From the NCBI GenBank assembly GCA_947564835.1, contig CANOET010000005.1:1-47556 (forward strand): a stretch of 47,556 nt of DNA, read 5' to 3'. The stretch's first letter is position 1. Each line of letters starts with the position of its first letter. The translations under genes were made by a program, and so were the position numbers. Shown here piece after piece: positions 2,357 to 44,159 of the stretch. Below the pieces are notes generated by a model. The model did no database searches, was not told where the DNA came from, and saw only the letters and a list, made by a program, of their open reading frames with translations. The stretch comes from an uncultured Eubacterium sp. Lineage in GTDB: Bacteria; Bacillota; Clostridia; Lachnospirales; Lachnospiraceae.

Positions 2357-3184
2357 ATGATGGAACTGGATCATATTACTCTGCGCAGGCTGCAGCTGAC
2401 AGAGCTGGAACTGTTAGCAGAGGTACACAGGATCTGCACAAAATGCAGAATCCATTACAATCTTATCGCAGGCACGCTTCTGGGCGCAGTCAGGCATGGC
2501 GGATTTATTCCATGGGATGATGATGCGGATGTAGCGCTGCTGCGGCCGGAGTATGAACGGTTCCGCAAGGCATGCCGGACGGAATTGGATCAGGCCAGGT
2601 TCTATTTCCAGGACCAGAGGAATACGCCCGGGTACCGGTGGGGATATGGAAAGCTGCGCAGGAAGGATACGCTGTTTTTGCGGGAACACCAGGAACATAT
2701 GCCTTATCGGCAGGGGGTGTTTATTGACATCTTTCCGCTGGATTATGTACCGGAAAATTACACTTTGCGGCGGATACACAATCTGCAATGTTTTTTCTAC
2801 CGGAAATTTTTCTGGGCGGAAGCAGGCAGGAAAGCAGACCCGGATCCGGTTATGCGGCTGCTGTACCGTATGATGGCAAAGGTACCGGAACAGGCACTGA
2901 AAAAAAGTTTTTACAGGTTTATTCAAAAGAGCAACCGTAAACAGTCCGGGTGGGTGCGGATTCTTACGTTTCCAACACCGAACAGGGCTTACGGCTACCG
3001 GGTGGAATGGTATTTGCATTCGGCGGATGTTTTGTTTGAGGGTTTGACGTTTCGTGGAATAAGGAATTACCAGGAATACTTATCGTTTAAATTTGGAAAC
3101 TACATGGAACTGCCTCCGGAGAACGGGAGAAAGGTGCATCCGGTCAGCAGGATCAGGGTGCCGGAAAGGAATGTAAGCAGATGA
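2357..3184 (+). CDS. LicD family phosphotransferase
   Basis: LicD proteins transfer phosphocholine or other phospho-alditols from a CDP donor onto surface glycans. The family signature is clear: GTLLGAVRH at 39-47 and PWDDDAD at 53-59, the acidic cluster being the metal/nucleotidyltransferase-fold active site. The 275-residue length is normal. Two ATG codons are adjacent at the start (2357 and 2360). The stop overlaps the next start as ATGA at 3181, showing translational coupling to the radical SAM gene. The neighbouring cytidylyltransferase fusion could supply the CDP-activated donor, which is an inference from position. A second LicD lies at 30561. Confidence 0.9.
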   Translation: MMELDHITLRRLQLTELELLAEVHRICTKCRIHYNLIAGTLLGAVRHGGFIPWDDDADVALLRPEYERFRKACRTELDQARFYFQDQRNTPGYRWGYGKLRRKDTLFLREHQEHMPYRQGVFIDIFPLDYVPENYTLRRIHNLQCFFYRKFFWAEAGRKADPDPVMRLLYRMMAKVPEQALKKSFYRFIQKSNRKQSGWVRILTFPTPNRAYGYRVEWYLHSADVLFEGLTFRGIRNYQEYLSFKFGNYMELPPENGRKVHPVSRIRVPERNVSR

Positions 3185-4359
3185 GGCTGACAAGATCATT
3201 TCAAAAAGAAGATTGGGACGGCAGCCAGAAAATTATTATATATGGCGCGGGCCGTTATGGCGAGATTGCGCTGCGTGGTTTGGAAAAAACAGGGCTGCGG
3301 GCGGATTTTTTTGCAGACAGGGGATATCCGGGGAAGGAATATTTTGGTGTGCCGGTGATTCGGCCTGCGGAATTAGTAAAATACCGTTCTGAAATATTTC
3401 TCCTTGCATCCTTGAATTATTTTTATGAAATGTACCGGGAGCTGCAGCAGATCAAAGCAGAAAATATATATGATATCGAATCCTTTTTACTAGAGGAATT
3501 GGAGGAAAGCCAGCTGTCTGAATATGCACTGGATGAAAAGAAGAATTTCCACAAGTATCAGGATATGATTTGCCTGGGCGACGGGAATGGGCTGATGATC
3601 AAGCATGTAGAGCTGGTAGTGACAGAAAAGTGTACCTTAAAATGCAGGCATTGTGCAAGCCTTATGCCATATTACAAGCATCCGTCGGATTTGGCATGGG
3701 GGGGGGTAATTGAGGAATTTGACCAGTTTCTTTCAGCTGTTGACCTGCTTTTGGAATTGAGGATTTTGGGAGGGGAACCGTTTTTATACAAAGATCTCCA
3801 CAAACTGGTCAACAGGTATGCGAAATGTGAAAAAATAAAAAGGATCACTATTTACACGAATGCAACGGTTGTACCGGATCAAAAAGCAGTACAGGCATTG
3901 CATGCCGCAAACGTATCCGTACATATCTCAGATTATGGGCAGCAAAGTAAAAAATTAAAAGAGCTGCAGCAGATATTTACAGATCGGGGCATTTCCCATA
4001 CGGTGCATCATTATGAGAAATGGTACGATATGGGGCCGGTTACGAAAAGGGATTATGAGGAATGTCAGCTAGAGACAATGTATGATGGGTGCTATGCCGC
4101 GAAATGCCATACATTTTTGAACGGTAAGCTGTATATATGCCCAAGGGCGGCACATGGCGAAAGCCTGGGATTTTTCCGCAACGGGCCGGGAGAGACGGTT
4201 GATTTTAAGGAAGGCCGGACAGATCGAAACGAAAAAAAGCAGCAGCTTTTACAGATGCTGGATGGAAAAAAGCGATTCGAAGCATGCCGTTATTGCAAAG
4301 GGTGCGGCAACCAGTCGCCGGAAGTAAAGGCGGCGGAACAGATGGAGAAAGACAGATGA
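3181..4359 (+). CDS. Radical SAM protein with N-terminal Rossmann-like module (poly-G gene 1)
   Basis: Residues about 17-100 form a Rossmann-like module beginning IIIYGAGRYGEIAL, which recurs in many proteins of this cluster. The radical SAM core follows: CTLKCRHC at 151-158 (CxxxCxxC for the 4Fe-4S/SAM cluster) and GGEP at 197-200 for SAM binding. The C-terminal part carries further cysteines (around CYAAKC, ICPR and CRYCKGC), suggesting a SPASM-like auxiliary cluster. The substrate is unknown; the context suggests modification of a sugar or polyol intermediate of the surface glycan. A G9 tract at 3698-3706 encodes W173-G-G-V and is in frame here, so the gene is ON. It is coupled at both ends by ATGA overlaps. 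Confidence 0.88.
   Translation: MRLTRSFQKEDWDGSQKIIIYGAGRYGEIALRGLEKTGLRADFFADRGYPGKEYFGVPVIRPAELVKYRSEIFLLASLNYFYEMYRELQQIKAENIYDIESFLLEELEESQLSEYALDEKKNFHKYQDMICLGDGNGLMIKHVELVVTEKCTLKCRHCASLMPYYKHPSDLAWGGVIEEFDQFLSAVDLLLELRILGGEPFLYKDLHKLVNRYAKCEKIKRITIYTNATVVPDQKAVQALHAANVSVHISDYGQQSKKLKELQQIFTDRGISHTVHHYEKWYDMGPVTKRDYEECQLETMYDGCYAAKCHTFLNGKLYICPRAAHGESLGFFRNGPGETVDFKEGRTDRNEKKQQLLQMLDGKKRFEACRYCKGCGNQSPEVKAAEQMEKDR
3698..3706 (+). repeat. Poly-G tract (G9), in frame, in radical SAM gene
   Basis: Nine consecutive G residues sit inside the radical SAM gene just after its CxxxCxxC motif. They are read TGG GGG GGG GTA, so the downstream frame is preserved. Gain or loss of one G would truncate the enzyme soon after its cluster-binding motif. 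Confidence 0.9.
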
Positions 4360-5339
4360 AAATACTGCAGTTTCCGATTGCGGATTCTTTCGGGGGAATT
4401 ACGCATTATGTCCTGGATAACTGGAAATGGATTGACAGGGAAAAATTTCAGTTTGATTTTGCGACAATGAGCAAAAAACTTGATTTTGCAGACCAGATAC
4501 TTTCCTCCGGCAGCAAAATTCATTATATTTCATGCTATGCGGAAGATGACAGCAGGCAGTTTGCCAGAGAAATACACCGTATTCTGGATGAAGGGTATGA
4601 TGCTGTGCATCTGCATACGAAGCAGTGGAAAAGTTTATTGGTCGAGAAAATCTGCCTGGAACGTAAGGTTCCCAAAATAATCGTCCATTCCCACTCGACA
4701 CAATGTGATGCCGATGATGCTCATGTACGCAGGAAGGAAACAGAGAGGCATGAGCAGATGAAGAAAGAATTTAACAGCTCTCTGGCTACAGACTTTTGGG
4801 CATGTTCCGATGCCGCAGCCGACTGGCTGTTTGGAAATCAGGTTCCGCGGGAAAAGGTCCGGATGATGAGGAATGCCATTGAGGTAGAGAAATTTTCATA
4901 TCATGAAAAAATAAGGAGAGAAGTCCGGCAGAGGCTGGGAGTGGAAGGGAAGTTTGTACTTGGGAATGTGGGGCGTATGGTTTACCAGAAAAACCACAGA
5001 TTTTTACTGCAGGTTTTCTCAGAAGTATGCAGGATCAATGAAAATGCAATATTGCTTTTGGCCGGAAACGGACCTTTGGAACACGAGAAAGGAAAAAATT
5101 CGGACATTACGCTGCGCCAGATGGCAGAAATGACTGTAAAGCTGGCCGGAACACAGGTCGTATTTCAAAAGCCAGGCGGGGAGCCGGAAATAGCCGGATA
5201 TACAACGGCTGTAAACGCATTGCTGGACGGGACAAAAATGGAAAGGCTCGGATGGACAGCCGGTACATCGTTGATGGAAGGAATGAAAAAAGTATTTCTG
5301 ATACATGGCGGGAAAAGCAGGCAGCAGGAAGAGGTGTAG
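4356..5339 (+). CDS. Chimeric GT4 glycosyltransferase / NAD-dependent epimerase C-terminus
   Basis: The start ATG overlaps the previous stop (ATGA at 4356). Residues 1 to about 244 are a GT4-type glycosyltransferase: a GT-B N-terminal domain, then the start of the donor domain with VGRMVYQKNHRFL (205-217) and LLLAGNGP (233-240). The reading then switches, around KGKNSD, to the C-terminal end of an NAD-dependent epimerase/dehydratase: ITLRQMAE, TTAVNALLDGTKMERLGW and SLMEGM resemble that family's end. The donor-binding half of the GT4 (with its E-x7-E region) and the Rossmann core of the epimerase are both missing. This looks like an in-frame deletion joining two former neighbours. The product is probably not a working glycosyltransferase, though the frame is open. 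Confidence 0.75.
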   Translation: MKILQFPIADSFGGITHYVLDNWKWIDREKFQFDFATMSKKLDFADQILSSGSKIHYISCYAEDDSRQFAREIHRILDEGYDAVHLHTKQWKSLLVEKICLERKVPKIIVHSHSTQCDADDAHVRRKETERHEQMKKEFNSSLATDFWACSDAAADWLFGNQVPREKVRMMRNAIEVEKFSYHEKIRREVRQRLGVEGKFVLGNVGRMVYQKNHRFLLQVFSEVCRINENAILLLAGNGPLEHEKGKNSDITLRQMAEMTVKLAGTQVVFQKPGGEPEIAGYTTAVNALLDGTKMERLGWTAGTSLMEGMKKVFLIHGGKSRQQEEV

Positions 5340-5341
5340 AT

Positions 5342-6386
5342 ATGGTACCTATACAAAAAAAGATTGCAGATATTTATTCCAGACTGGGAGACGATACATC
5401 CAAAATGATTTATGCCAACCGGCTGTTATACAGCCTGACCGGTGATCAAAAATATTTGCAGGCCATAATAGGCATGACTGCAGAAGGCAGGGAATTTTAT
5501 AACCGGCTGAAAGACGGCAGATGCAAAGTTATTTTCGGAGCCGGTGTATGGGGAAAGGAAATTATAAAAACTTATACAGATGTACCGTTTGCATGCTTTG
5601 TGGATAACCAAAAGGCAGGCGGAAAGCTGCTGGGACTGCCTGTGATTTCTTTTGCGGAATATATACAGCGATACCGGGAAGATCTGGCTGTTATTGCCAC
5701 GCGGCTGTATTATGAAGAGTTTTATCAGCAGCTCAAAGAGCATGGCATTCCTGATTCCAATATTATAAATATTGGAAAAATCATTGATGGATTGAGCAGA
5801 AAACAGTATTTTGATTTGCCAGAATTGAAAAGTGCCATATGCCGGAAAGAAAATTTTGTCGATGCAGGCAGCTTTGACGGCAGAACTTCGATTTTATTTT
5901 CGGAGTGGGCGAAGGAAAAGTGCGGGAAAATATGGGCGTTTGAGCCAGAACCAGATAATGCAGCCTGCTGCAGAAAAAACCTCTTAAAATCTTTCGGGGG
6001 GGGGGTATATCCAATATGAAGTAATCCAAAAAGGGTTATGGGATTGCAGGAAACAGGTATCTTTTGCGTCCGGAGCCAAAGGAGCTTCCAAGATTGGCGA
6101 TATGGGAAACAGTACGATCGAAGTGGATCAGCTGGATGCCGTGCTGCCGGAAGGAGAGCCTGCGACATTTATAAAAATGGATCTGGAAGGCGCTGAGTAT
6201 CATGCACTGGAAGGTGCAAAACAGACAATTCAAAGATATAGGCCGAAGCTGGCCATCAGCGTTTATCATAAGCCGGAAGATATCTGGGAGATACCGGGGG
6301 TTATTTTGAATATCCATCCGGGTTATAAGCTGTATCTCAGACATTATTCCATTGCAGCGGCAGAAACAGTGGTGTATGCGATTTAA
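5342..6386 (+). pseudogene. FkbM family methyltransferase, frameshifted at a G10 tract (phase OFF)
   Basis: The first reading frame (5342-6019) gives a Rossmann-like module (GAGVWG at 66-71, FVDN near 87) and then an FkbM methyltransferase start: FVDAGSFDGRT at 172-182 and FEPEP at 200-204. It ends prematurely 14 bases after a run of ten G. The second frame continues without a break from the tract to 6386 and holds the FkbM C-terminus (FIKMDLEGAEYHALEGA, PKLAISVYHKPEDI). With nine G the two parts join into one protein of 347 residues. FkbM enzymes O-methylate sugars or polyketides. A start at 5342 is chosen over upstream codons because it sits just after the preceding stop. Because both halves are otherwise undamaged, this reads as a reversible OFF state rather than decay. 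Confidence 0.88.
5996..6005 (+). repeat. Poly-G tract (G10), out of frame, in FkbM gene
   Basis: Ten consecutive G residues mark the exact point where the FkbM coding potential changes frame. One G fewer restores TTC GGG GGG GGG TAT and the full-length protein. Confidence 0.92.
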
Positions 6387-6431
6387 AAAAGCTTTGGCTG
6401 ATTGATTTGTAACAAACAGGTGGAAAAGCAG

Positions 6432-7535
6432 ATGATTAAAATAATAAATGCAGGAATTAACAATTTTTATAAGGAACTAGAGGGTAAAAAGTTTTTTATG
6501 TTTGGAGCTGGAAGGCGGGCATTTATTCTTTATGAAGAATTGGAGTTGGATGGAAGAATTACTGCAATTGTAGATAATAATGAACAATTATGGAGAAAAG
6601 GAGTGTATCTTGGAAAAGAATGGATACCTGTGATAAGTGTAGGAAATTTTTTAAGACAGATTTCCGAGAATGGATTGTCAAAGATTTTGCTGTTAATTAC
6701 ACCTACGTTTTATACATGGGAAATTATACAGCAACTGGATCAATTGCCAGAATTAGATGGCTTAAGATGTTATCTTGGCGATTTTTTAATTTATCAGTAT
6801 GAAAAGAAAGAATTTATTTTTACAAATGGCAATCCTAAGATACCTAAAAAAATACACTACTGTTGGTTTGGAAAAAAAGAGGTACCTTCTCATTTGCGTG
6901 TATATATGGATTCATGGAAGAAGAAATGCCCGGAATATGAAATTATCCGTTGGGATGAAAGTAATTATGATGTTACAAAGAATAGGTATATGCAAGAAGC
7001 ATATGCGTGTGGAAAATGGGGATTTGTGCCGGACTATGCGCGGTTGGATATTATTTATCAGGAAGGTGGTATTTACTTAGATACAGATGTAGAGTTGCTG
7101 TCATCCCTGGATCCTTTATTGTGTGATGAAATGTTTTGTATCGCTGATAATAATATAGCTATTAATTTTGGGTCTGGATTCGGAGCAGTGAAAGGACATG
7201 CTGCGATAAAAGAATTAAGGGATGCTTATGACGGAAAGACTTTTTATAATACGGATGGCAGTATGAATTTGATGCCGTGTTATACCTATCAGAATCCTGT
7301 TTTAAAAAGATTAGGTTTTAAAATAAAAAATGAATATCAGAAAATAGATGATATGGTGTTATACCCATCAGAAATTAGTGAAAATATGAGGATGAAATGG
7401 GTTCAGAATAATTTTACAAAAAATACGGTTATGCGCCATCATTCGGAATTGAGCTGGATCAGTCAGGAAGAAAAGAGGAATATGCAAAATTATATAAAAA
7501 ATATACAGAATAGAAAATGCAATCATGAGAAGTAA
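6432..7535 (+). CDS. GT32/capsular polysaccharide synthesis glycosyltransferase with Rossmann-like module
   Basis: The N-terminal module (FGAGRRA at 24-30, IVDNN near 46) is followed by a GT32-type catalytic domain: IPKKIHYCWFG at 137-147, WGFVPDYARLDIIYQEGG and the metal-binding YLDTDVE around 215-221. The family transfers hexoses from nucleotide donors in capsule and surface glycan synthesis. I chose ATG 6432, preceded by AGGTGG, over a TTG at 6402. This gene opens the AT-rich cassette; base composition drops sharply here compared with the FkbM gene. It is a paralogue of the next gene, sharing the same two-domain layout. Confidence 0.88.
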   Translation: MIKIINAGINNFYKELEGKKFFMFGAGRRAFILYEELELDGRITAIVDNNEQLWRKGVYLGKEWIPVISVGNFLRQISENGLSKILLLITPTFYTWEIIQQLDQLPELDGLRCYLGDFLIYQYEKKEFIFTNGNPKIPKKIHYCWFGKKEVPSHLRVYMDSWKKKCPEYEIIRWDESNYDVTKNRYMQEAYACGKWGFVPDYARLDIIYQEGGIYLDTDVELLSSLDPLLCDEMFCIADNNIAINFGSGFGAVKGHAAIKELRDAYDGKTFYNTDGSMNLMPCYTYQNPVLKRLGFKIKNEYQKIDDMVLYPSEISENMRMKWVQNNFTKNTVMRHHSELSWISQEEKRNMQNYIKNIQNRKCNHEK

Positions 7536-7583
7536 TAAAGGAAATAGTACGCAGTAGAATGCCAGAGTGAAGGAGAAGATTGG

Positions 7584-8687
7584 ATGTTGCTTATAAATGG
7601 GACAATCTATCAATTTTTGGAAATGATAAATGGAAAAAAATTGATCTGCTTTGGGGCAGGTCAAGCGCTGAATAATTTTTTAGAACATTATGCTGATCTT
7701 TATTTGGAAAAGAAAATAGTTTGCATAGCAGATAATATGAACAGCAAAATTGGAAAAAAGGTGCGGGTTGGAAATACAGAATGCTCTGTAATAAGTGTGA
7801 ATGAGCTAGTAAACATGAAAAATATCATAATTTTGATAACTTGTCATGCCGTCTATGATGTATATATACAGCTTAGCAAGTATCGACAGTTAAAAGATGT
7901 GCATTGTTGGGCTGCAAATTATATTCGCAGTGAGACAAATCAGTATTTGAACCTAAAGAGACAGTATCCGATTCATTATCGATTAACGAAAGAACAGTTA
8001 ATACCAAAAAAGATACACTATTGTTGGTTTGGAAAGAATCCAATACCGAAAAGAAACAGAGAATGGATGGACAGCTGGAAAAAATACTGCCCGGATTATG
8101 AAATTATCAGATGGGATGAGACTAATTATGATATTTCTAAAAATGATTATATGTATCAGGCATATAAAGCAGGAAAATGGGGGTTTGTGCCAGATTTTGC
8201 AAGATTAGATATTATTTACCGTTATGGAGGTGTTTATTTAGATACAGATGTAGAATTGGTTAAAAATATTGATGAATTACTATATCAAAAAGCTTTTGCG
8301 GGTATCGAAGGAACACAATATGTTAATTTGGGTTTGGGGTTTGGTGCGTATCCAGGATGCCAGGTAATCAAAGAAATAAGAGATACATATAAAGAAAAAA
8401 AATTTATAAAGGAGGATGGCACTTGCGATATGACGCCTTCTCCTGTTGTCCAAAAAAAATTTTTTAGGGAAAATGGCTATATCAATAACGGTGATTATCA
8501 GGTTATTAAGGATATGACAATTTATCCAGAAAAAGTATTATCTGCAAAGTGTCTTTGGACAGGAAGAATCCAGATTACAGAGCATACATTTGCAATTCAT
8601 CATTATGATGCCTCCTGGACTTCAGAACACTTGAAAAGGGAAACATTATTAAATAAACAATTGTTTCATCATTTATGCCAGACTTAA
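7584..8687 (+). CDS. GT32/capsular polysaccharide synthesis glycosyltransferase (second copy)
   Basis: This 367-residue paralogue of the preceding gene has the Rossmann-like module (CFGAGQA at 22-28, CIADN near 47) and the GT32 core IPKKIHYCWFGKN (from 140), WGFVPDFARLDIIYRYGG and YLDTDVE at 218-224. A GGAG stretch precedes the ATG. The two proteins have diverged enough in the N-terminal module to suggest different partners or acceptors, and they probably add successive residues to the same repeat unit. Codon use is AT-rich as in its neighbours. Confidence 0.88.
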   Translation: MLLINGTIYQFLEMINGKKLICFGAGQALNNFLEHYADLYLEKKIVCIADNMNSKIGKKVRVGNTECSVISVNELVNMKNIIILITCHAVYDVYIQLSKYRQLKDVHCWAANYIRSETNQYLNLKRQYPIHYRLTKEQLIPKKIHYCWFGKNPIPKRNREWMDSWKKYCPDYEIIRWDETNYDISKNDYMYQAYKAGKWGFVPDFARLDIIYRYGGVYLDTDVELVKNIDELLYQKAFAGIEGTQYVNLGLGFGAYPGCQVIKEIRDTYKEKKFIKEDGTCDMTPSPVVQKKFFRENGYINNGDYQVIKDMTIYPEKVLSAKCLWTGRIQITEHTFAIHHYDASWTSEHLKRETLLNKQLFHHLCQT

Positions 8688-8756
8688 AGATGAAGATACA
8701 AAACAGAAAGAAATAGACGCTTTTGTTTTTATTATATTCAGAAAGAAGGAGAGTTA

Positions 8757-9449
8757 ATGGTAACGGAGTATATAGATTATGCAAAATATAATAATGGTTG
8801 GATTATTTCTAAAATCTCAGGCCATGCCAGAAAAAAGATGTTTAAATATTTCATGCATAATTTTAGGCCGATAAAAAATGACAGGATACTTGATGTTGGC
8901 GTTACGCCAGATAATGCAAAGGAACCAAATAATTTTTTTGAAAAGATGTATCCTTGGAAAAGCAGCATTACGATGTGTACAGTTGAAAATGCAAAAAATC
9001 TTGAAAAAGAATTTCCTGGAAGTAAGTTTATTCAAAATGAAGCAGGAAAACCGCTGCCTTTCAAAGATGGACAGTTTGATATTGTATTTTGCAGCGCAGT
9101 ATTGGAACATGTTGGAAATAATAAAGAACAAAGATTTTTTTTAAGGGAGTTAATCCGGGTTGGAAAGAGAGTATATTTGACAACACCTAACAGATGGTTT
9201 CCTTTTGAGGTACATACAGTATTACCATTTATCCATTGGCTTCCGCAATTTCAGCATCAAAGAATTTTGAAGTTATTAGGTAACAATATGTATGCGGATA
9301 CAAAGAATTTGAATTTGTTAAGCAAAAGAAAACTTACTGTTATGCTTCAATCAATAAAAATACCAATGAAATGGAAATTTTCATCGTATAAATTATTTGG
9401 TTTAACATGTAATATCTTACTTTTTGTGGAAAGGGAGGAGGAAAAATAG
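8757..9449 (+). CDS. Class I SAM-dependent methyltransferase
   Basis: A 230-residue methyltransferase with ILDVGVTPDN at 44-53 (motif I, with the usual GxG varied to GVT) and FDIVFCSAVLEHVG at 107-120, followed by TTPNRWFPFEVHT at 142-154. The ribosome binding site GAAGGAGAG is well spaced from the ATG. It ends three bases before the GT2 gene and is surely cotranscribed with it. Such enzymes often sit beside GT2 enzymes acting on polyprenyl phosphate. The methylated substrate is unknown; a glycan or lipid-linked sugar is the natural guess. Confidence 0.85.
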   Translation: MVTEYIDYAKYNNGWIISKISGHARKKMFKYFMHNFRPIKNDRILDVGVTPDNAKEPNNFFEKMYPWKSSITMCTVENAKNLEKEFPGSKFIQNEAGKPLPFKDGQFDIVFCSAVLEHVGNNKEQRFFLRELIRVGKRVYLTTPNRWFPFEVHTVLPFIHWLPQFQHQRILKLLGNNMYADTKNLNLLSKRKLTVMLQSIKIPMKWKFSSYKLFGLTCNILLFVEREEEK

Positions 9450-9451
9450 AA

Positions 9452-10606
9452 ATGTGTGAATTGACTATTTTGATGCCATGTTTGAATGAATCAGAAACAT
9501 TAGGGATATGCATTCAAAAAGCAAAGAAGTTTCTGGATGAAAATCATATTGAGGGAGAAATTTTAATAGCTGATAACGGAAGTACGGATGGAAGTCAGGA
9601 AATTGCGTCAAGGGGGGGGGCAAAAGTAATTTCAGTAGAAAGAAAGGGGTATGGAAGCGCATTGATTGCTGGCTGTAATGCGGCAAAGGGAAAGTATGTA
9701 ATTATGGGAGATTCTGATGATAGTTATGATTTTTCAAATTTAATGCCATTTATAGAGAAATTAAGGGCGGGATATGAACTTGTTATGGGCAACCGGTTTG
9801 CTGGCGGGATAGAGGATGGAGCCATGCCATGGCTGCATCGGTATATTGGAAATCCAGTTCTCTCGTTTGTGGGAAGGGTTTTCTTTAAAAGTTGGATTAA
9901 TGATTTTCATTGTGGATTAAGAGGGTTTAATCGTGAAAGTATTATGAAACTTGATCTTAAGACAACAGGAATGGAATATGCAAGTGAGATGGTAGTAATG
10001 TCAGAACTAAATCATTTGAAAATAACAGAAGTTCCGACAACTTTGAAAAAGGATGGAAGAAGCAGGGCTCCACATTTAAGAAGTTTTCGTGATGGCTGGA
10101 GACATTTAAAATTTTTATTTATGTACGCACCAAACTGGCTTTTCTTATACCCAGGTATTGCCCTGATTATGATAGGAATTATAGGAAGTATATTTTTAAT
10201 GCTTGGACAGCTGCCTTTGTTCCATGTTGTTCTCAGCATTCATTCGCTGTTATATTGTATGTCTTTTTTGCTAATTGGATTTACCATAATTAATATGTTT
10301 TTTATTGTTAAACTTTATGCATATAATCATCATTTTATTCCAGAGCAGCAATCAGTGAATTGGAATGAAAAACTAAAAGAAGACAAATTTATATTTGGAG
10401 GAGGAGCGCTTGCCTTTTTAGGTATGTTGCTATCTGGTTGTGCATTATTGTATTGGAAAAATTCAGGGTTTTCAGAATTAGTACCAGAAGTTGTGATGCG
10501 TATAACGATTCCAGCTGTAACTTTAATCGAATTGGGGCTGCAGTTAATATTTTTTGGTTTTATGATTGGTATTCTAAAAATTAAAGTGATAGAAACAAGC
10601 ATATAG
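9452..10606 (+). CDS. GT2 polyprenyl-phosphate glycosyltransferase, membrane-anchored (poly-G gene 3)
   Basis: The GT-A domain shows PCLNE at 9-13, DNGSTDGS at 41-48 and the DXD-type DSDDSYD at 87-93, as in dolichol/undecaprenyl-phosphate sugar synthases. The C-terminal third has about four membrane segments, anchoring the protein at the inner face of the membrane. The G9 tract at 9612-9620 encodes R54-G-G-A and keeps frame, so the gene is ON; a slip would stop translation before the DXD motif. AGGGAGGAGG precedes the ATG. The next gene encodes a likely GT-C enzyme that could use its lipid-linked sugar product. Confidence 0.88.
   Translation: MCELTILMPCLNESETLGICIQKAKKFLDENHIEGEILIADNGSTDGSQEIASRGGAKVISVERKGYGSALIAGCNAAKGKYVIMGDSDDSYDFSNLMPFIEKLRAGYELVMGNRFAGGIEDGAMPWLHRYIGNPVLSFVGRVFFKSWINDFHCGLRGFNRESIMKLDLKTTGMEYASEMVVMSELNHLKITEVPTTLKKDGRSRAPHLRSFRDGWRHLKFLFMYAPNWLFLYPGIALIMIGIIGSIFLMLGQLPLFHVVLSIHSLLYCMSFLLIGFTIINMFFIVKLYAYNHHFIPEQQSVNWNEKLKEDKFIFGGGALAFLGMLLSGCALLYWKNSGFSELVPEVVMRITIPAVTLIELGLQLIFFGFMIGILKIKVIETSI
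9612..9620 (+). repeat. Poly-G tract (G9), in frame, in GT2 gene
   Basis: Nine G residues in an otherwise AT-rich gene, read AGG GGG GGG GCA. The tract lies early in the gene (codons 54-57), so a one-base slip removes nearly the whole protein. Confidence 0.92.
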
Positions 10607-10669
10607 ATAAAGTAAGTTACTTAGCAGCAAGACAAGATTATCAATCATAACGAAGGATAGGGGCAGAAG

Positions 10670-12445
10670 ATGGAAGATATAAAAAATAAAAAAAACTTGT
10701 TTCATGTGTATTATTTTATTGCTATGATAACAAGTTATCTGACAATGAGACAATTAAATCGACAAATGTCGGAAAGTATTCGTTTGATTTTTTATATGCT
10801 ATTATTTTTTTCACTAGTTCATTATGAGAAAAACATCCAAAAAATAAATTTTATTTTTTATAAGCCATGGCACAAAATGATGCTTTTGTTATTAGAGTTT
10901 TATATCACATTTTCTATTACAGGGGTTTATGTATTAGACTCAAGTGTAGAATATGAAATGGCATACATAGATATAGTTTATGTTATATTATCGTTCATTT
11001 GGGTACATCCAATTGCTTTATTACTTTTGGAGAAAATACTCTTTATTGGTAATCCCCAAAATATAGGGAAGCAGAAATTTAATAGGAGTATACGATGGCA
11101 ACTAGTCATTTTGATGATGATTCCTTGTATTTTATTTTGTATAGGTTTTAATCCTGCAATAACTAGTTCTGATTCTGAGTATTGTTTTGACCTTGCCCAT
11201 AAGATTTGGGAAACAGAAGTTGTTATGGAAGATTGGCAGCCTCCATTTTATATTTTTATATTAAATATCTTGATTAAAATATATGATTCTGTTTCATTTG
11301 TCATTATTATACAATGTATTTGTTTTTCATTGGTTTTTGTAGACGGGATTTTATATTTTAATGAAAAAGGTGTTTCTAGAAAATTATTGGTGATCATATA
11401 CTGCTTTATTTCATTTGGAATAAGTAATTTAATACAATTATCGACACTTTGGAAAGATATTCCATATATGATTTCCATGATGTGGCTGACGATATTAATA
11501 ATAAAATTTGTATTAGATAAAGATTTATATCAGAAAAAATGGAGCTGGTATATCCAGCTGGTATTTGCATCTGTTTTTTCAGCATTATTCAGACAGAATG
11601 GGATACTTCCGGTATTTGTTATTATTATTTTGTTTCCACTTATATCAAAAGAATCTAAAAAAGTTTTATTAGCGTGTATAATGAGTTTTATTTTGATTTT
11701 ATTAATTAAAAATCCATTATACCAGGCAATGGGGGTGTTAGAAGCGCCACAGTTAAAGTTCTTTTCTCTTGCAAATGATATTATGTATTCATATTACAAA
11801 GGCAATACAATATCGGATGAAGCTATGGATATAGTTAATAAGGTTACATCGAATGATCCTGAAAACTTTGAATATAATGCCTATTTTGTTAATTATAAAA
11901 ATAGTGAACCGAAAGGATATTCTGTAATAGAATTTATGAAAATCTATTTAGAAAATGCCTTAAGGAATCCAAGAGACTCTATAATGGCAGTTTTAATAAG
12001 AAGTTCTAATATATGGAGTATTGTAAAGCCATATGATGAAGTAGCAGGATCGGTTAATTATACTGGGGAATGTATTTCATATACTGAGAATGTATATCCA
12101 TATAGGAAAGTAAATAGAATTACGGTTTTTTTGACAGATATCTGTAGAGCCGTCACAGGAAATAGTGTTTTATATGTGATATATTGGCGGACAGGAATAT
12201 ACAATATTTTGATATTTTCTATGCTAGGAATAATATTAATTAAAATTGGTATTAAAGATCTTATATTTTATATAATGCCTTTTATTCCTATTGTATGCAA
12301 TTTGTTTGCTCTGTTTATTACATCAGGATGGCCTGAATACAGATATTTTTGGCCAAGTATGACAATTAGCTTGTTATTGCTATGCTATTTTATTTTATTA
12401 AAAATGTCTGTAAACTTAGATGAAGGGGGTAAAAATGTTTACTAA
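10670..12445 (+). CDS. Polytopic membrane protein, GT-C-like glycosyltransferase
   Basis: A 591-residue, very hydrophobic protein with roughly a dozen membrane segments. A conserved-looking extracellular loop reads ITSSDSEYCFDLAHKIW followed by DWQPPFY (about 164-194); an acidic S-D-S plus a D-W-x-P-P element is typical of GT-C enzymes that use lipid-linked sugars outside the membrane, and resembles the uncharacterised DUF6020 group. I infer that it transfers a sugar made by the GT2 just upstream. The C-terminal end overlaps a small remnant reading frame. The exact family assignment is unsure. Confidence 0.7.
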   Translation: MEDIKNKKNLFHVYYFIAMITSYLTMRQLNRQMSESIRLIFYMLLFFSLVHYEKNIQKINFIFYKPWHKMMLLLLEFYITFSITGVYVLDSSVEYEMAYIDIVYVILSFIWVHPIALLLLEKILFIGNPQNIGKQKFNRSIRWQLVILMMIPCILFCIGFNPAITSSDSEYCFDLAHKIWETEVVMEDWQPPFYIFILNILIKIYDSVSFVIIIQCICFSLVFVDGILYFNEKGVSRKLLVIIYCFISFGISNLIQLSTLWKDIPYMISMMWLTILIIKFVLDKDLYQKKWSWYIQLVFASVFSALFRQNGILPVFVIIILFPLISKESKKVLLACIMSFILILLIKNPLYQAMGVLEAPQLKFFSLANDIMYSYYKGNTISDEAMDIVNKVTSNDPENFEYNAYFVNYKNSEPKGYSVIEFMKIYLENALRNPRDSIMAVLIRSSNIWSIVKPYDEVAGSVNYTGECISYTENVYPYRKVNRITVFLTDICRAVTGNSVLYVIYWRTGIYNILIFSMLGIILIKIGIKDLIFYIMPFIPIVCNLFALFITSGWPEYRYFWPSMTISLLLLCYFILLKMSVNLDEGGKNVY

Positions 12446-12557
12446 ATTATTTCATGATAAAGTAGTTTATTCCCGAAGAATGGAAAGATTAACGGAATTA
12501 ATTTCTGAAATGATGCGGGGATGGACATGGGAAATGAGGGAGAAGAATTATGGATAA
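12435..12557 (+). pseudogene. N-terminal stump of a class I SAM methyltransferase
   Basis: A 40-codon frame with its own GGGGGT ribosome binding site overlaps the end of the membrane gene. It reads MFTKLFHDKVVYSRRMERL then LTELISEMM and RGWT, which matches how many surface-glycan methyltransferases begin, just before the missing LDVGCGDG motif. The frame then stops inside the start of the radical SAM gene. The best explanation is a deletion that removed the catalytic part and brought the radical SAM gene next to the stump. It may still serve as a leader coupling translation of the radical SAM gene. Confidence 0.5.
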
Positions 12558-13488
12558 TTGTATAGAATTGCCACGTATGAACCATATAGATTTAAAAATA
12601 ACATACAACTGTAATTATAAATGTGAATATTGTTATCAGAATGATAAAGAAGGGAAAAGATGTAGTACGGACTTTCTCTCTAAAGAAAATGCTAAGTATT
12701 TTGTTGAATTTTGCAGGAGATTGGGAGAACCTTTTCATATTACTTTAGCTGGAGGAGAACCTTTTGTTTATCCGTATTTACATTATTTGGCAGAAAATTT
12801 AACTTTAATGGGAAACATTATAAATTTAATTACCAATTTTTCTGCGCCTGAAGAGAAGCTTTATGAATTTTTTGAAAGCTGTAATAATAAATTGGAATGG
12901 TTTAATATATCTGTGCATTTAAGTCAATGGGAGAAGATTGAAGAATTTTATGAAAAACTTGATAAAGTCTTACAATATAAAAAGAATAAGAATAAGAGTT
13001 TTCATATAAATCTTACCAGCGTTGTTACGTTGGAAAATTTTGAGGAGGTTAAGCAGCTGGTCAAAACGATAGAGCAGAGATATGAGGACGTTCCAATTCA
13101 TTTACAGAGAGTAAAATATTGCGGGAAATATGCTCTTTATCCAGAAGAAATTGAAAAATATTTATTGGATAAAGGGGTGACTGTATCAAAAGAAGAAGCT
13201 AATCATATTAATTTTTACGGTAGAAAATGTTGGGGGGGGGTAAAATTTTTTTATGTAGAATCAAATGGGGATATTAAACGATGTTATACAAAACAAAAAA
13301 ATCCTATGGTATTTCATTTAGGAAATTTAAGCAATTTAGATCAAGTAAAAATTTACAAAGAACCATATCCATGTTTGTCTGAAAAAAATGGGGCATGTAT
13401 TTGTCATCCACATTTTGTAAATGAGAAATTTGTTACACAAGTTATGTCTTCGGAACAAGAAATTGCTGATTGGAGCATTAAGGTTTGA
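12550..13488 (+). CDS. Radical SAM protein (poly-G gene 4)
   Basis: A 312-residue radical SAM enzyme: CNYKCEYC at 21-28 binds the 4Fe-4S cluster and AGGEPF at 67-72 is the SAM-binding motif. C-terminal cysteines at about 227, 245, 275, 283 and 285 resemble an auxiliary cluster domain. It is a close paralogue of the radical SAM domain encoded at 15889 but lacks that protein's N-terminal Rossmann-like module. A G9 tract (13232-13240) encodes W228-G-G-V just after C227; the frame is intact, so the gene is ON. A slip would remove the last 80 or so residues including the C-terminal cysteines. The substrate is unknown. Confidence 0.88.
   Translation: MDNCIELPRMNHIDLKITYNCNYKCEYCYQNDKEGKRCSTDFLSKENAKYFVEFCRRLGEPFHITLAGGEPFVYPYLHYLAENLTLMGNIINLITNFSAPEEKLYEFFESCNNKLEWFNISVHLSQWEKIEEFYEKLDKVLQYKKNKNKSFHINLTSVVTLENFEEVKQLVKTIEQRYEDVPIHLQRVKYCGKYALYPEEIEKYLLDKGVTVSKEEANHINFYGRKCWGGVKFFYVESNGDIKRCYTKQKNPMVFHLGNLSNLDQVKIYKEPYPCLSEKNGACICHPHFVNEKFVTQVMSSEQEIADWSIKV
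13232..13240 (+). repeat. Poly-G tract (G9), in frame, in radical SAM gene
   Basis: Read TGG GGG GGG GTA. At the equivalent position the paralogue at 15889 has CWAGSKFF with no G run, so the tract is not forced by protein function. Confidence 0.92.
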
Positions 13489-13535
13489 TAACGATTTGCT
13501 TTGGAGCCATGATGCTGTAATAAATAGGAGAGGCT

Positions 13536-14586
13536 ATGTGTCAGAGTAAAAGAATAGGATATATTAATTCATTAAAAGGGATTGCGAGCGTTAATATTGT
13601 ATTACATCATTTTGTGTTAAATATTGGTATTCCAGAAATACCAATAAGTATGATACAGCAATATATGGCTTGGTGTGGAAAATACGGGTATTTAGGCGTA
13701 GAACTTTTTTATTTTCTGTCCGGTTATCTGATATTAGAGCATTATAACAGCAGGATCAGAAAAATGTCTTTGTATTCATTTCTAAAAAAGAGATTTTTGA
13801 AGCTGTATCCGGTGTTATTCATAAATACATTACTGATGTTTGTATATGCTAAGCCTTCTATATTGAAAGTGGTTAGGAATCTGTTGTTTCTGCAGGCAGG
13901 TTATTATGCTGCGTATGATTCATATGGAAATATAACTTTTATGGATGACTGGGGGGGGAGCGACATGGTTTTTAGCGCCGTTAATAGTATGTTATGTGGG
14001 ATTTTACTATATTACAAAATATTGTCAGGAGGAAACCTGTATGGTGTTATATGTAATATTAACATTGACAGGGACAATCACTTTGGAAGCTGGTTGGGAG
14101 TATCCTTTTTTTAATACAATGACTGCGAGAGGATTGTCAGCTTTCTTTTGTGGGGCGTTATTTTGGAAAATATGGGAAAAAAACCGTTATTTTTTAAAGG
14201 ATATTCCGACAGGAATTGTTTCGGCTTTAATTTTGAGCAGAGTAATATGGGAAATTTATAATAATTGTTCATCTAATTTGACGATTATTTCCAGCATGAT
14301 TATCATGCCTAATATTCTTGTTATATGCGATAAAGTTGCAGTTGTCAGAATATTTATGGAAAATCCGGTATTTCAATGGTTTGGAAGACAATCTTTGATG
14401 ATATATCTTTTACATATGCCTATTCGCCGATGGATGGAAGTTGGATATTTAAAATTTGCAAGTGGCAATCTAAACAGTGAAAATTTTCTTTTTGGATATT
14501 TATTGATCTTATTTGCTGTGTCAGTGATATATGCAAGGTGGGGAAATAAATGCAGAGATATTATAAAAAAAATATTTACAAATTGA
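13536..14586 (+). pseudogene. Acyltransferase 3 family protein, frameshifted at a G8 tract (phase OFF)
   Basis: The first frame (13536-14114) begins like an acyltransferase-3 membrane protein: a start near GYINSLKGIASVNIVLHHF with the catalytic-type histidine, and LGVELFYFLSGYLI. It leaves the family at DDWGG and ends in unrelated residues. Another frame carries on from the tract as GATWFLAPLIVCY to 14586, with further membrane helices and an LLHMPIRRW motif. Removing one G (G7) or adding two (G10) joins them; the G7 version has 349 residues. These enzymes O-acetylate or otherwise acylate exported glycans. Both halves are otherwise clean, which argues for a switchable OFF state. A GGAGAGG ribosome binding site precedes the ATG. 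Confidence 0.88.
13951..13958 (+). repeat. Poly-G tract (G8), out of frame, in acyltransferase gene
   Basis: Eight G residues mark the frame switch in the acyltransferase gene. G7 gives TGG GGG GGA GCG ACA TGG, restoring the family's TWFL region. Confidence 0.9.
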
Positions 14587-14631
14587 TTGTAAATATAGAA
14601 TTATTGTACGGAAAATTGAATGGGTGATAAA

Positions 14632-15870
14632 ATGACAGATATTAATATTATAAAAGAAACATTGAAAAGTATAATTGAATCCGGCAAGAAAAAATTTGTT
14701 ATTTTGCCATATGGAAAATTGGGAAAATTTGTACAAAGAGAATTAAGAGAGCAATATGGGATTCAGGAAAAAATGTGCCTGGATAGCGCGGGGGGGGGTA
14801 AAAATACAGAAGGTGCAATTAAAATGAGCGAGGTTACGTGGAGTGTTTTTGAAGATGACTGTTATTTCTTGTTAGTATCTGCAAGGGAACAAATCCGACA
14901 GGAATTGACAAAAAGTTTATTAGACCATCAAATTGGCAAAAATAGAATTATTGATATATTTGCTGAAGAAAATTTTAATGTGAAATTTACAGATGTGAAA
15001 TTAGATTTTTTATGTGTAGGATTTCAAAAATGTGGTACTACTTCATTAGATTTTGCTTTAAAAGAAAACAGATATATTTATACTCCTCCAGAAAAAGAAA
15101 CACTATATTTTAAATGGTATAAAAATTTCAGTAATTCAGGAGAGATGTTTGCAAAAAGTTTTCCGGAAGAAAAGTGTCGTGGAAAGGTGGTAGGTGGGAT
15201 AGAACCATCTTTTTATAATAATGCCCAGCAAGTATATCAATGTTTTGGTGATAAAATTAAAATACTATTTATGGTGAGAAATCCGATTGAGAGTACAGAT
15301 TCTTTTTTTAGAATGATTATGAGAGAAGTTGTTGATGAATCAAATCTTACATATTATAAATTATATGAAAAAGTATCACCTATCATGTTTGATGCCTGGG
15401 TGAAGGATAATGAGCATTTATATAGTGAATTTAGATATATGAATTATATAGAAGAATATTTGAGATATTTTAAAGCTGAAAATATAAAGGTAATTATATT
15501 TGAAGATTTTTTACATGATACGCGTAAAGTAATGGATGAGATTCAACAATTTATAGGATTAAATAATAATTTATGTAAAACCTATGCATCAGTCCCACAT
15601 GAAAACATCGGTACGTTAGTAAGTAAGAATTATGCTTGTGCGATGGTTAATCATGCACTAAATAATAAAATAAATGAAATAAGGTCAGAAGGGAGTCAAT
15701 TGATGGAAGAAGTGAAAGAAATCAAATCACAAATGGGGATATTTACAAGAGAGCCATATCAAGAATCTATATTGCGGGAAACATTTGAAAGATTAAATGC
15801 TTATTTTGAAAACAGTAATCTTCGCCTGGAAAAATTTTTAAACCGAAAAATGAACTGGTCACAAGAATGA
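14632..15870 (+). CDS. Sulfotransferase with N-terminal Rossmann-like module (poly-G gene 6)
   Basis: Residues about 20-110 are a variant of the cluster's Rossmann-like module (FVILPYGKLGKFVQ). The sulfotransferase domain follows: FQKCGTTSLD around 131-140 is the 5'-phosphosulfate loop and RNPIESTDSFF at 216-226 the 3'-phosphate motif for PAPS. The enzyme would sulfate a hydroxyl of the glycan or its precursor, rare in Firmicutes surface polymers. ATG 14632 follows a GGTGAT site; an in-frame ATG at 14620 is the alternative. The G9 tract at 14790-14798 encodes A53-G-G-G-K inside the module and is in frame, so the gene is ON. No PAPS synthesis genes are in the window. Confidence 0.85.
   Translation: MTDINIIKETLKSIIESGKKKFVILPYGKLGKFVQRELREQYGIQEKMCLDSAGGGKNTEGAIKMSEVTWSVFEDDCYFLLVSAREQIRQELTKSLLDHQIGKNRIIDIFAEENFNVKFTDVKLDFLCVGFQKCGTTSLDFALKENRYIYTPPEKETLYFKWYKNFSNSGEMFAKSFPEEKCRGKVVGGIEPSFYNNAQQVYQCFGDKIKILFMVRNPIESTDSFFRMIMREVVDESNLTYYKLYEKVSPIMFDAWVKDNEHLYSEFRYMNYIEEYLRYFKAENIKVIIFEDFLHDTRKVMDEIQQFIGLNNNLCKTYASVPHENIGTLVSKNYACAMVNHALNNKINEIRSEGSQLMEEVKEIKSQMGIFTREPYQESILRETFERLNAYFENSNLRLEKFLNRKMNWSQE
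14790..14798 (+). repeat. Poly-G tract (G9), in frame, in sulfotransferase gene
   Basis: Read GCG GGG GGG GGT AAA. It lies in the N-terminal module, ahead of the PAPS-binding motifs, so a slip would abolish the enzyme. Confidence 0.9.
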
Positions 15871-26335: not shown

Positions 26336-27984
26336 TGGCTGAGTGGTATGGAAGGGCATGCGGGGAGGATCTGCAGGCGGACGAAGCGGATCAGGCAGTT
26401 GCAAGGCTGATTGCAGGCAATGCATCCGAAGATTATGACCGGGCGCTTGGAAATGTGGAAGCGTGGCAGCCGTTTTACCATTTGAGCAGTATGCGCAAGG
26501 GGCTGTTTTACTGGTATGAATTTAAGGAAGACGCTGCCCTTTTGGAGGCAGGGGCAGCATTCGGCGCACTGACGGGGCTGTTTTGTGACAGATGCAGGCT
26601 GGTCGTTGCAGCGGAAGCAGATGATTTCCGGGCGGTATGGCTGCGGAAAAGATACAGCCGCAGAAAGAACCTGTGTGTGTATCACGGAGATATTTCAGAG
26701 CCGGGCTTTACAGTGGATTTCCCGGAAAAATTTGATTATATCGTTGTGGCGGATCTCTTTGGGGAACGGTTTGCGGGCAGCAGCTGCATGGATTTATATG
26801 CCGGGTATGTGAAAGAACTGACAAAATTGCTGAAACCGGACGGGCATTTGCTGTTGGCGGTGGATAACCGTTATGGAATCCGGTATTTTTGCGGTGCGCC
26901 CGATCCGCATACCGGACGGCCTTTTGATGGGATTAACCGTTATCCATTCGGGACCAGTGGATATTCTTTCAGCAGGCAGGAGCTGATTTCGGTTATGGAG
27001 CAGGCCGGGCTGCGCTGGAAATTATATTATCCGCTTCCGGACCACAGGCTTGCGCAGCTGATTTATTCGGATGCGTATCTGCAGGGAAGCAGCATCCAGG
27101 AACGCCTGGTGCCGTATTATACGGACAGCTCCGGCCTGGTGGCATATGAAAAAAACTTGTATGCGGATCTGATGGAAAACCAGGTGCTGCCGTTTTTTGC
27201 AAATGCGTTTCTTGCAGAAGGTACCGTGCAGGGAGATTTTTGTCCGGTGATTTATGCAGCCGTGTCTTCAGACAGGGGCAGGGAACACGGATTCGCGACA
27301 ACGATACGGGATGACGGAACAGCAGAAAAAGTCTGTCTGGATCAGGCGGGGCGAAACAGCCTGCAGAAGATCCTGGAGCATATCGGCCAGCTGAAACGGC
27401 AGGGGATTCAGGTGGTGGAACATCATTTGTCCGATGGCAGGCTGTCCATGCCTTATATCAAAGCGCCGACACTTTCCAATGTGCTGCATGCATGTGTATT
27501 CGCCCAGCCGGAGGAGTTTCGCGCATGGCTGGATCTGCTGTATCAAAAAATCCTGCAGTCTTCAGAGCATGTTCCGGAAAAGGATAATTTCTTTATAAAA
27601 AAATACGGCGGAGGTATCAGGTATGGCACGGTTTTAAAAAGGGCGCTGACCGATATGGTGCCGGTGAATTGTTTCTGCATACACAATGACTTGTATTTTT
27701 TCGATCAGGAATTTGCGCTGGATAACTGTCCGGCCGGATATGTGATGTACCGTGCATTGATTTATACCTATATGTATCTGCCCAAAATCGGGCAGGCAGT
27801 CCCGATGCAGGACCTTATCCAAAGATACCGTCTGCAGGATGCCTGGCAGGTTTATGAACAGGAAGAACAGGCATTTATTGCATCAAACCGGAATATGCAG
27901 ATCTATGGGCAGTTTTACAAGTGGTCACAGGTAGATCAGGACCGTATTTATCAAAAGATGATGGCGAAGAAAGGAAATACATGA
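26335..27984 (+). CDS. Large class I SAM-dependent methyltransferase
   Basis: Residues 60-250 form a methyltransferase with motif I LEAGAAFGALTG (70-81), FDYIVVADLFGE and LLKPDGHLLLAVDNRYGIRYF. The last 300 residues are an extra domain with no clear signature; its HNDLYFFDQEF stretch recalls the HxD/DxE elements of kinase-like folds, which I note without claiming activity. Proteins of this two-part shape occur in clostridial polysaccharide clusters next to HAD proteins and ABC exporters. It may modify or cap the chain before export, an inference from position. AGGAGGG precedes the ATG; the stop overlaps the permease start (ATGA at 27981). Confidence 0.8.
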   Translation: MAEWYGRACGEDLQADEADQAVARLIAGNASEDYDRALGNVEAWQPFYHLSSMRKGLFYWYEFKEDAALLEAGAAFGALTGLFCDRCRLVVAAEADDFRAVWLRKRYSRRKNLCVYHGDISEPGFTVDFPEKFDYIVVADLFGERFAGSSCMDLYAGYVKELTKLLKPDGHLLLAVDNRYGIRYFCGAPDPHTGRPFDGINRYPFGTSGYSFSRQELISVMEQAGLRWKLYYPLPDHRLAQLIYSDAYLQGSSIQERLVPYYTDSSGLVAYEKNLYADLMENQVLPFFANAFLAEGTVQGDFCPVIYAAVSSDRGREHGFATTIRDDGTAEKVCLDQAGRNSLQKILEHIGQLKRQGIQVVEHHLSDGRLSMPYIKAPTLSNVLHACVFAQPEEFRAWLDLLYQKILQSSEHVPEKDNFFIKKYGGGIRYGTVLKRALTDMVPVNCFCIHNDLYFFDQEFALDNCPAGYVMYRALIYTYMYLPKIGQAVPMQDLIQRYRLQDAWQVYEQEEQAFIASNRNMQIYGQFYKWSQVDQDRIYQKMMAKKGNT

Positions 27985-29318: not shown

Positions 29319-29319
29319 G

Positions 29320-30054
29320 ATGATGCGTGAAATTGCTTTGGAAGTCAGCCATGTCAGTATTGATTATAAAAACCTGATGCATATGTCACTGCACCAGAGC
29401 CTGTTAAATAAGGATATAAAAAAAGCAGAGACGATACGGGCGGTCAGCGATGTTTCTTTCACGGTCGGAAAGGGAGAGATTCTGGGTATCGTAGGCCGCA
29501 ATGGTTCGGGGAAAACGACATTGCTGCGTTCCATTGCAGGAATCTTCCGGCCGGATGAGGGGAGGATTGATACGAAGGGGAACCGTGTGTCTTTGATGGC
29601 GATCGGAATCGGCTTCAATGGAAATAATACCGGACGGGAGAATATCCTAAAGTCGGGGATGCTGTTAGGGTGCAGGCTGGATTATGTGAAGGCGCATATG
29701 GATGAAATTATTGCGTTTTCGGAACTGGGCGAGTTTATTGACCGCCCGGTCAGGACCTATTCCAGCGGAATGTATTCCAAGCTGTCTTTTGCGGTGACGG
29801 CGATTCTGGATACAGATATTATGCTGGTGGATGAGGTGTTGAGCGTGGGAGATGAGCATTTTAGGAAGAAAAGCTATCAGAAGATGAAGGAACTGATGAT
29901 GAGCAACCGGACAGTGCTGATTGTTTCACATGCGACCGAAACGCTGAAAAAATTTTGCGACAGGGTGTTCTGGATTGACAATGGAACGTTTATGGAGATT
30001 GGGGAGACAAATGAAGTTTTAGAACATTACAATGCATTTATGAGTACGCTTTGA
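29320..30054 (+). CDS. Polysaccharide ABC exporter ATPase (TagH/Wzt type)
   Basis: A 244-residue ABC ATPase with Walker A GRNGSGKTT at 59-67, signature YSSGM at 147-151, Walker B IMLVDE at 167-172, and the switch histidine in VSHATE. The N-terminal 40 residues and YSSGM signature are typical of the teichoic-acid/O-antigen exporter subfamily. It lacks the long C-terminal carbohydrate-binding domain of some Wzt proteins, so chain recognition may lie elsewhere, perhaps in the permease ectodomain. It would power export of the lipid-linked polymer made by this cluster. Confidence 0.93.
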   Translation: MMREIALEVSHVSIDYKNLMHMSLHQSLLNKDIKKAETIRAVSDVSFTVGKGEILGIVGRNGSGKTTLLRSIAGIFRPDEGRIDTKGNRVSLMAIGIGFNGNNTGRENILKSGMLLGCRLDYVKAHMDEIIAFSELGEFIDRPVRTYSSGMYSKLSFAVTAILDTDIMLVDEVLSVGDEHFRKKSYQKMKELMMSNRTVLIVSHATETLKKFCDRVFWIDNGTFMEIGETNEVLEHYNAFMSTL

Positions 30055-44150: not shown

Positions 44151-44159
44151 GGGGGGGGG
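44151..44159 (+). repeat. Poly-G tract (G9) in the intergenic region before the debranching enzyme
   Basis: A seventh long G run, outside any gene I can support, about 130 bases upstream of the debranching enzyme start. The surrounding 187 bases have no clear promoter. Length change here could alter spacing of regulatory elements. Confidence 0.85.

What the first reader, a model, noticed from the sequence alone, without database searches (positions are those of the whole stretch)
3698..14798. Six poly-G contingency tracts in one Gram-positive surface-glycan cluster
Runs of G8-G10 occur inside six glycan genes: radical SAM (3698, G9), FkbM methyltransferase (5996, G10), GT2 (9612, G9), radical SAM (13232, G9), acyltransferase (13951, G8), sulfotransferase (14790, G9). 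All lie on the coding strand and mostly encode Gly-Gly. Four of the six are in a stretch so AT-rich that G runs stand out strongly. Four genes are ON and two OFF. Slipped-strand phase variation through poly-G is well known in Campylobacter and relatives; a multi-gene set combining radical SAM, sulfation, acylation and methylation in a Lachnospiraceae-like genome would be a new combinatorial surface-variation system.
Basis: partly seen in the sequence, partly recalled or inferred. Interest (0 to 1): 0.95.

Follow-up and report, generated by a model that had tools for sequence, protein, structure and literature searches.

The report
Poly-G switches in gut-bacterium glycan genes
A relative of the mouse-gut bacterium Eubacterium plexicaudatum carries runs of eight to ten Gs inside six genes predicted to build or decorate its surface sugars, two of them out of frame in this assembly, and such runs likely act as random on/off switches that would let a population vary its coat, a tactic best known from Campylobacter.

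Summary
All six tracts are at the stated coordinates on the coding strand. Four G9 genes are in frame; the G10 and G8 genes are out of frame. The cluster has no run of six or seven G, and a chance model predicts about 0.3 runs of eight or more. Of 182 tracts examined in three genomes, 98 lie sense in long ORFs and 20 antisense. Genes with a recognised domain are largely methyl-, acyl-, sulfo- and glycosyltransferases and radical SAM enzymes. Both phases occur at one site: the window's FkbM gene is out of frame, but a database protein identical over 221 and 94 residues reads through the tract; near relatives show both states, as do an ASF492 sulfotransferase family and a permease. Slipped-strand phase variation is well supported by comparison; switching rate and glycan phenotype are untested. 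The mechanism is known. Its scale in a clostridial commensal, the TA after 60% of genic tracts and the common G9 ON length appear new.

The parts
3698..3706 (+). G9 tract, in frame, in radical SAM gene 3181-4356 (tract about residue 173 of 392); next bases TAA
   Evidence: PF04055
3181..4359 (+). radical SAM gene, ON in the assembly
5996..6005 (+). G10 tract that splits the FkbM methyltransferase gene; next bases TAT
   Evidence: read-through protein P0071
5252..6386 (+). FkbM-type methyltransferase gene, OFF: first part 5252-6016, second part in another frame to 6383
   Evidence: PF05050 in second part
9612..9620 (+). G9 tract, in frame, in glycosyltransferase family 2 gene; next bases CAA
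9452..10606 (+). GT2 gene, ON
   Evidence: PF00535
13232..13240 (+). G9 tract, in frame, in second radical SAM gene; next bases TAA; relatives have the same residue spacing here without a G run
12550..13488 (+). radical SAM gene, ON
   Evidence: PF04055
13951..13958 (+). G8 tract that splits the acyltransferase gene; next bases AGC
13536..14586 (+). acyltransferase family 3 gene, OFF: pieces 13536-14111 and 13945-14583 in different frames
   Evidence: PF01757 positions 2-95 and 123-321
14790..14798 (+). G9 tract, in frame, in sulfotransferase gene (about residue 57 of 416); next bases TAA
14620..15870 (+). sulfotransferase gene, ON
   Evidence: PF00685 and PF13469
983..31478 (+). predicted surface-polymer cluster around the six genes: cytidylyltransferase/oxidoreductase fusion, two LicD genes, glycosyltransferases, methyltransferases, ABC-2 exporter 27921-30054, cytidylyltransferase 30092
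   Evidence: Pfam; role inferred
44151..44159 (+). seventh tract, G9, not in a long ORF; role unknown, probably not part of the set

Best explanation
Six genes of a predicted surface-glycan cluster each contain a run of eight to ten G on the coding strand, four in frame and two out of frame, and these runs likely act as contingency loci that gain or lose a G by slipped-strand mispairing during replication and so would switch each enzyme on or off at random. Shown: positions, frames, excess over chance in the cluster, sense-strand bias, the genus-wide set, and both phases at the same site in relatives. Inferred: that the indels arise by replication slippage, that they are frequent and reversible, and that the output is variation in methylation, acylation, sulfation, sugar transfer and radical-SAM chemistry of a surface polymer (up to 64 states from this cluster). 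G9 is the commonest ON length in the genus; the TA that often follows the run (TAA or TAG in about a third of genic tracts) would end one of the two wrong frames at the tract.
For: Cluster excess and empty G6-G7 classes. 9-151 runs of G8+ in all 13 congeners against nine or fewer in 41 of 47 other family members; in the own genome 83 runs of G8+ but 23 of exactly G7. Sense 98, antisense 20 of 182 tracts, p 1.5e-13. Where both flanks are open for 60 codons or more: 53 sense, 10 antisense; 23 of the 53 in frame, 30 shifted. Tract length divisible by three in 19 of 23 in-frame and 7 of 30 shifted genes, p 2e-5 (hand tally). FkbM: window out of frame, P0071 identical over 221 + 94 residues and in frame, P0074 and P0075 in frame, P0072 and P0073 shifted after GGG. 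ASF492 sulfotransferase family: P0031-P0034 in frame, P0035 and P0036 shifted after GGG. Permease: own and ASF492 G9 in frame, G004 G8 shifted; other 79 loci write the same glycines without a run of eight G.
Against: No read data, clone or phenotype. mutS and mutL are intact in the own genome, which would be expected to lower slippage. P0071 comes from a 1,257-base contig with no source shown and an unmatched 14-residue tail, so it could be another assembly of the same sample. The ORF rule is mechanical and some 'sense' ORFs are probably not genes. Two congeners (G001, G008) have more G7 than G8+ runs. The ASF492 FkbM copy (six G, plus a 24-base gap) may simply be decayed. Whole-window excess is modest.
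Confidence: 0.85

Rival explanations
1. Assembly or sequencing error: G runs are hard to read, and the two OFF genes are miscounted runs in intact genes.
For: The genome is in 385 contigs, and by hand count about 24 of its 83 tracts lie within 150 bases of a contig end. Tract counts in databases can be wrong (PMC9187656, passages).
Against: Explains neither why long runs exist, nor their sense bias, nor function bias; independent assemblies and ASF492, held as a 6.35 Mb contig, show the same. Protein fragments ending at the run recur in separate relatives.
Confidence: 0.07
2. Programmed slippage in expression: RNA polymerase or ribosome slips on the run, so both frames yield some full-length protein at a fixed tract length.
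For: A run of G could in principle allow it; shifted genes stay open on both sides.
Against: Length varies between copies at one site, and in-frame genes cluster at lengths divisible by three; expression slippage needs neither.
Confidence: 0.07
3. Mutational accident and decay: the lineage makes G runs for another reason (repeats, weak repair), and shifted genes are pseudogenes.
For: Many non-genic tracts of the own genome lie in repeated elements. ASF492 mutS and mutL are interrupted and G008 has no hit over either cut-off. The ASF492 FkbM copy looks degraded. G076 has many runs without sense bias.
Against: Sense bias, function bias and long open frames on both sides of shifted tracts; intact copies occur beside shifted ones; mutS and mutL are intact in the own genome.
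Confidence: 0.05

Closest known systems
Campylobacter poly-G phasome (PMC6321876, passages seen; cgtB G8/G9 switch, PMC6437147, passages seen)
   Same: Coding-strand poly-G tracts, mostly in ORFs, lengths peaking at 9 and 10, many in surface-modifying genes, tens of loci per genome, ON and OFF copies at one site.
   Different: Unrelated phylum; here 43-51% of the own and ASF492 tracts aside, many tracts also lie in intergenic repeats; TA follows 59 of 98 sense tracts (whether this holds in Campylobacter was not tested); radical SAM genes among the targets; switching not shown experimentally.
Bifidobacterium breve pilus G-tracts (PMC9187656, passages seen)
   Same: Gram-positive gut commensal, G tract in a coding sequence splits a gene into two ORFs, mixed lengths in culture, enrichment of a productive length in mice.
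   Different: One or two tracts per genome in pilus genes; here tens of tracts, largely in enzymes that would modify glycans.
Neisseria phasome (PMC5953494, search listing and start of abstract only)
   Same: Many simple-repeat switches in surface genes.
   Different: Gram-negative; I did not compare tract by tract.
Invertible capsule promoters of Bacteroides (recalled, not looked up)
   Same: Gut commensal varying its surface polysaccharide.
   Different: DNA inversion of promoters, not frameshift; switches whole loci.

Membership tests
Simple-sequence contingency locus (slipped-strand phase variation) | Homopolymer tract long enough to slip (G7-G8 or more), above chance, inside a gene | tested here: met
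   G8-G10
Simple-sequence contingency locus (slipped-strand phase variation) | Change by one unit moves the downstream part out of frame | tested here: met
   Frames read
Simple-sequence contingency locus (slipped-strand phase variation) | Tract length or phase differs between copies of the same locus | tested here: met
   FkbM; sulfotransferase; permease; methyltransferase pair
Simple-sequence contingency locus (slipped-strand phase variation) | Frequent reversible switching within a clone | not testable with these tools
   No reads or cultures
Simple-sequence contingency locus (slipped-strand phase variation) | Switched phenotype | not testable with these tools
   No glycan data
Campylobacter-type phasome (whole-genome set) | Many coding-strand poly-G tracts per genome, length peak at G9 | tested here: met
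   27, 52 and 19 sense tracts in three genomes, G9 the mode in two and G8 in ASF492
Campylobacter-type phasome (whole-genome set) | Weak mismatch repair as background (recalled; not a strict requirement) | tested here: not met
   Intact mutS and mutL in the own genome; broken in ASF492, no hit over cut-off in G008

The most novel reading that the evidence does not exclude
The Eubacterium plexicaudatum genus has convergently evolved a Campylobacter-style phasome: tens of genic poly-G switches per genome with a stereotyped unit (ON at G9, then TA/TAA that stops one shifted frame), which shuffles methyl, acyl, sulfo and radical-SAM decorations of a teichoic-like coat. A prophage-like fibre array in the same genome carries the same G9 unit, as expected of an arms race over that coat.
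Probability: 0.5. Interest if true: 0.88.

Novelty: new variant of a known kind. Interest (0 to 1): 0.8.

Why it matters
Slippage phase variation is studied mainly in Gram-negative pathogens. A dense set in a Clostridia commensal genus that includes ASF492, one of the eight strains of the altered Schaedler flora, could be watched in gnotobiotic mice of known composition. It would make testable whether commensals hedge against phage, IgA or lectins by random decoration of their coat, and why a G9 switch arose in unrelated phyla.

Tried and rejected
Genome-contig scan with the window's sulfotransferase confirmed no relative; the second scan, with the permease, named ASF492. Relatives of the second radical SAM gene (15 of 30 aligned) have the same spacing but other residues where the window has its glycines, so no phase comparison was possible; P0001, 91% identical, differs at its N-terminus, not at the tract. 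The fibre-start pattern gave 0 hits in viral contigs and the fibre protein none in the phage records; in the genus the pattern hits four times in the own genome and once each in G003 and G012, the latter two not inspected. A mismatch-repair defect as general cause is not supported. Outside the genus, tract orientation was examined in G076 only: 7 sense, 9 antisense, 5 neither of 21 tracts (about 102 in that genome), so sense bias was not found there. Papers: 0 for E. plexicaudatum with phase variation; searches showed no paper on slippage switches in Lachnospiraceae or other Clostridia among the rows listed. One search listed 15 of 749 and one search listed 20 of 73; most subscription papers and all preprints are outside the library.

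Full report
Observation. The six G runs exist where stated, all on the coding strand. In 2357-15870 the G-run spectrum falls from 108 (G3) to 24 (G4) and 6 (G5), is empty at G6 and G7, and then shows one G8, four G9 and one G10. Markov-1 simulations give a mean of 0.29 runs of eight or more, maximum 3 in 1000. For the whole window the excess is modest (7 against 2.1, maximum 8 in 300). The four in-frame genes are all G9; the two shifted genes are G10 and G8.

Setting. The cluster holds a cytidylyltransferase/oxidoreductase fusion, LicD, several glycosyltransferases, methyltransferases, radical SAM genes, an acyltransferase and a sulfotransferase. An ABC-2 permease and ATPase, a cytidylyltransferase and a second LicD follow at 27.9-31.5 kb. 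A teichoic-acid-like surface polymer is the natural reading, but it is inference.

The genus. The own genome has 83 runs of G8 or more and 23 of exactly G7. The 12 congeners have 9 to 151; counting the own genome, 11 of 13 have more G8+ than G7 runs, G001 and G008 do not. Of the 47 other family members, 41 have nine or fewer and six have ten or more (G025 25, G028 19, G039 10, G041 33, G050 13, G058 11). Some genomes elsewhere in the order are also rich (G063, G076, G085, G097). Congener G003 is Eubacterium plexicaudatum ASF492: its permease tract has the same contig coordinate as in NZ_AQFT02000001.1.

Where the tracts sit. I examined 81 of 83 own tracts, 71 of 81 from G004 and 30 of 30 from ASF492. 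By the longest stop-to-stop ORF of 120 codons or more, sense / antisense / neither is 27/11/43, 52/7/12 and 19/2/9: 98 against 20, p 1.5e-13. The rule is mechanical and some 'sense' ORFs are probably not genes. Many of the other own tracts lie in repeated intergenic elements. Where both flanks are open for 60 codons or more, 53 are sense and 10 antisense; of the 53, 23 are in frame and 30 shifted. In-frame genes have a length divisible by three in 19 of 23, shifted ones in 7 of 30 (hand tally; p 2e-5). G9 is thus a common ON length across unrelated genes.

What the genes are. Own genome, ten proteins from six loci outside the window: PIG-L, radical SAM, TylF and FkbM methyltransferases, GT8, acyltransferase, another methyltransferase, MBOAT, a GDSL-like enzyme just below its cut-off, and one without a family. 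ASF492, 16 of 19 sense genes scanned: eight have a family over its cut-off, namely sulfotransferase, MBOAT, two acyltransferases, two methyltransferases, a LytTR response regulator and GmrSD. G004, 49 of 52 scanned: up to 15 match one methyltransferase family; GT2, pyruvyltransferase, acyltransferase and LytTR match two each. So not all targets are glycan genes, and many have no family.

Both phases at one site. FkbM: the window is out of frame at G10; P0071 is identical to the window over 221 residues up to and including the glycines and over 94 after them, and reads straight through. P0074 and P0075 read through; P0072 and P0073 carry on in another frame for 20 and 3 residues after GGG and end. 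The ASF492 copy has six G there, is out of frame, and also has a 24-base gap further on. A roughly 50% identical gene in G010 has an in-frame G9 at the equivalent place. Thirteen of 111 FkbM hits lack the FkbM domain; eight of these, by eye, break frame after a Gly-Gly pair, four are partial or unclear, one (P0152) was not inspected. Sulfotransferase of ASF492: P0031-P0034 read through, P0035 and P0036 end 9 and 4 residues after GGG, and P0040-P0045 lack the GGG. Permease: Gly-Gly-Gly is kept in 78 of the 80 loci (two have Ser-Gly-Gly), but only ASF492 among them writes it as nine G; the own genome does too, and G004 has eight and is shifted. In G004 two 95% identical methyltransferase loci differ by one A and one G at the run; this may be two strains in one bin.

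A signature. TA follows the run in 59 of 98 sense tracts, against 70 of 945 runs of G3-G6 in the same ORFs and 16 of 83 other tracts outside the window. In 35 of 98 the next triplet is TAA or TAG, so one wrong phase stops at once. Whether this is selected or a trace of how the runs arise is open.

Against. No reads, no clone, no phenotype. Mismatch repair looks intact in the own genome; mutS and mutL hits over the cut-off occur in 11 of 12 congeners, though the ASF492 genes are broken, and G008 has neither. P0071 has no listed source and an unmatched 14-residue tail. In G076, also rich in G runs, 7 of 21 examined tracts were sense and 9 antisense, so the case rests on orientation and site comparison, not on numbers of runs.

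Verdict. The finding is real and larger than stated. It is a known mechanism (Campylobacter, PMC6321876; Bifidobacterium pili, PMC9187656; passages read) in a setting for which my searches found no paper.

Noticed in passing
L088 (G000:C351, 3,318 bases, - strand): Four tandem genes share a start coding for MGIYLQKN-like residues followed by a G9 run, and with G9 the start-codon frame does not continue into the long downstream frame; one downstream part has weak tail-fibre matches (PHROGs, best E 7e-6), two have none. Perhaps a prophage fibre array with its own G switches.
   Followed up: partly
intergenic tracts of G000 and G004, e.g. L046, L068, L084; L106, L112, L123: Many non-coding G runs sit in repeated intergenic elements of at least two kinds, some with flanks like GGTTAGCC and GGCTAACC around the run.
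   Followed up: partly
L293 (G003:C1:1556500-1563600): In ASF492 mutS is interrupted by about 1.4 kb with weak DDE transposase matches and mutL is split in two frames; the break is not at a G run.
   Followed up: partly
G008: The one congener with no mutS1 or mutL hit over the cut-off also has more G7 (77) than G8+ (27) runs.
   Followed up: no
L248 (ASF492) and two G004 proteins: LytTR response regulators carry G runs, in ASF492 at the very end of the gene, so regulators may be switched as well as enzymes.
   Followed up: no
L032, L233, L127: A carbohydrate ABC permease writes a conserved Gly-Gly-Gly as a G9 or G8 run in this genus, so a nutrient transporter may be switched.
   Followed up: partly
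L236 (ASF492): A G9 run lies near the start of a GmrSD-type endonuclease gene, which could make a defence gene switchable.
   Followed up: no
G063, G085, G097 (one other family of the order) and G076: These genomes also have 39-102 runs of G8+; only G076 was looked at, without sense bias.
   Followed up: partly
contig ends of G000: By hand count about 24 of 83 G runs lie within 150 bases of a contig end, as if assembly stopped there; mixed lengths or poor reads could do this.
   Followed up: no
window 44151-44159: A seventh G9 run lies between a permease gene and a glycogen-debranching-like gene; no role assigned.
   Followed up: no
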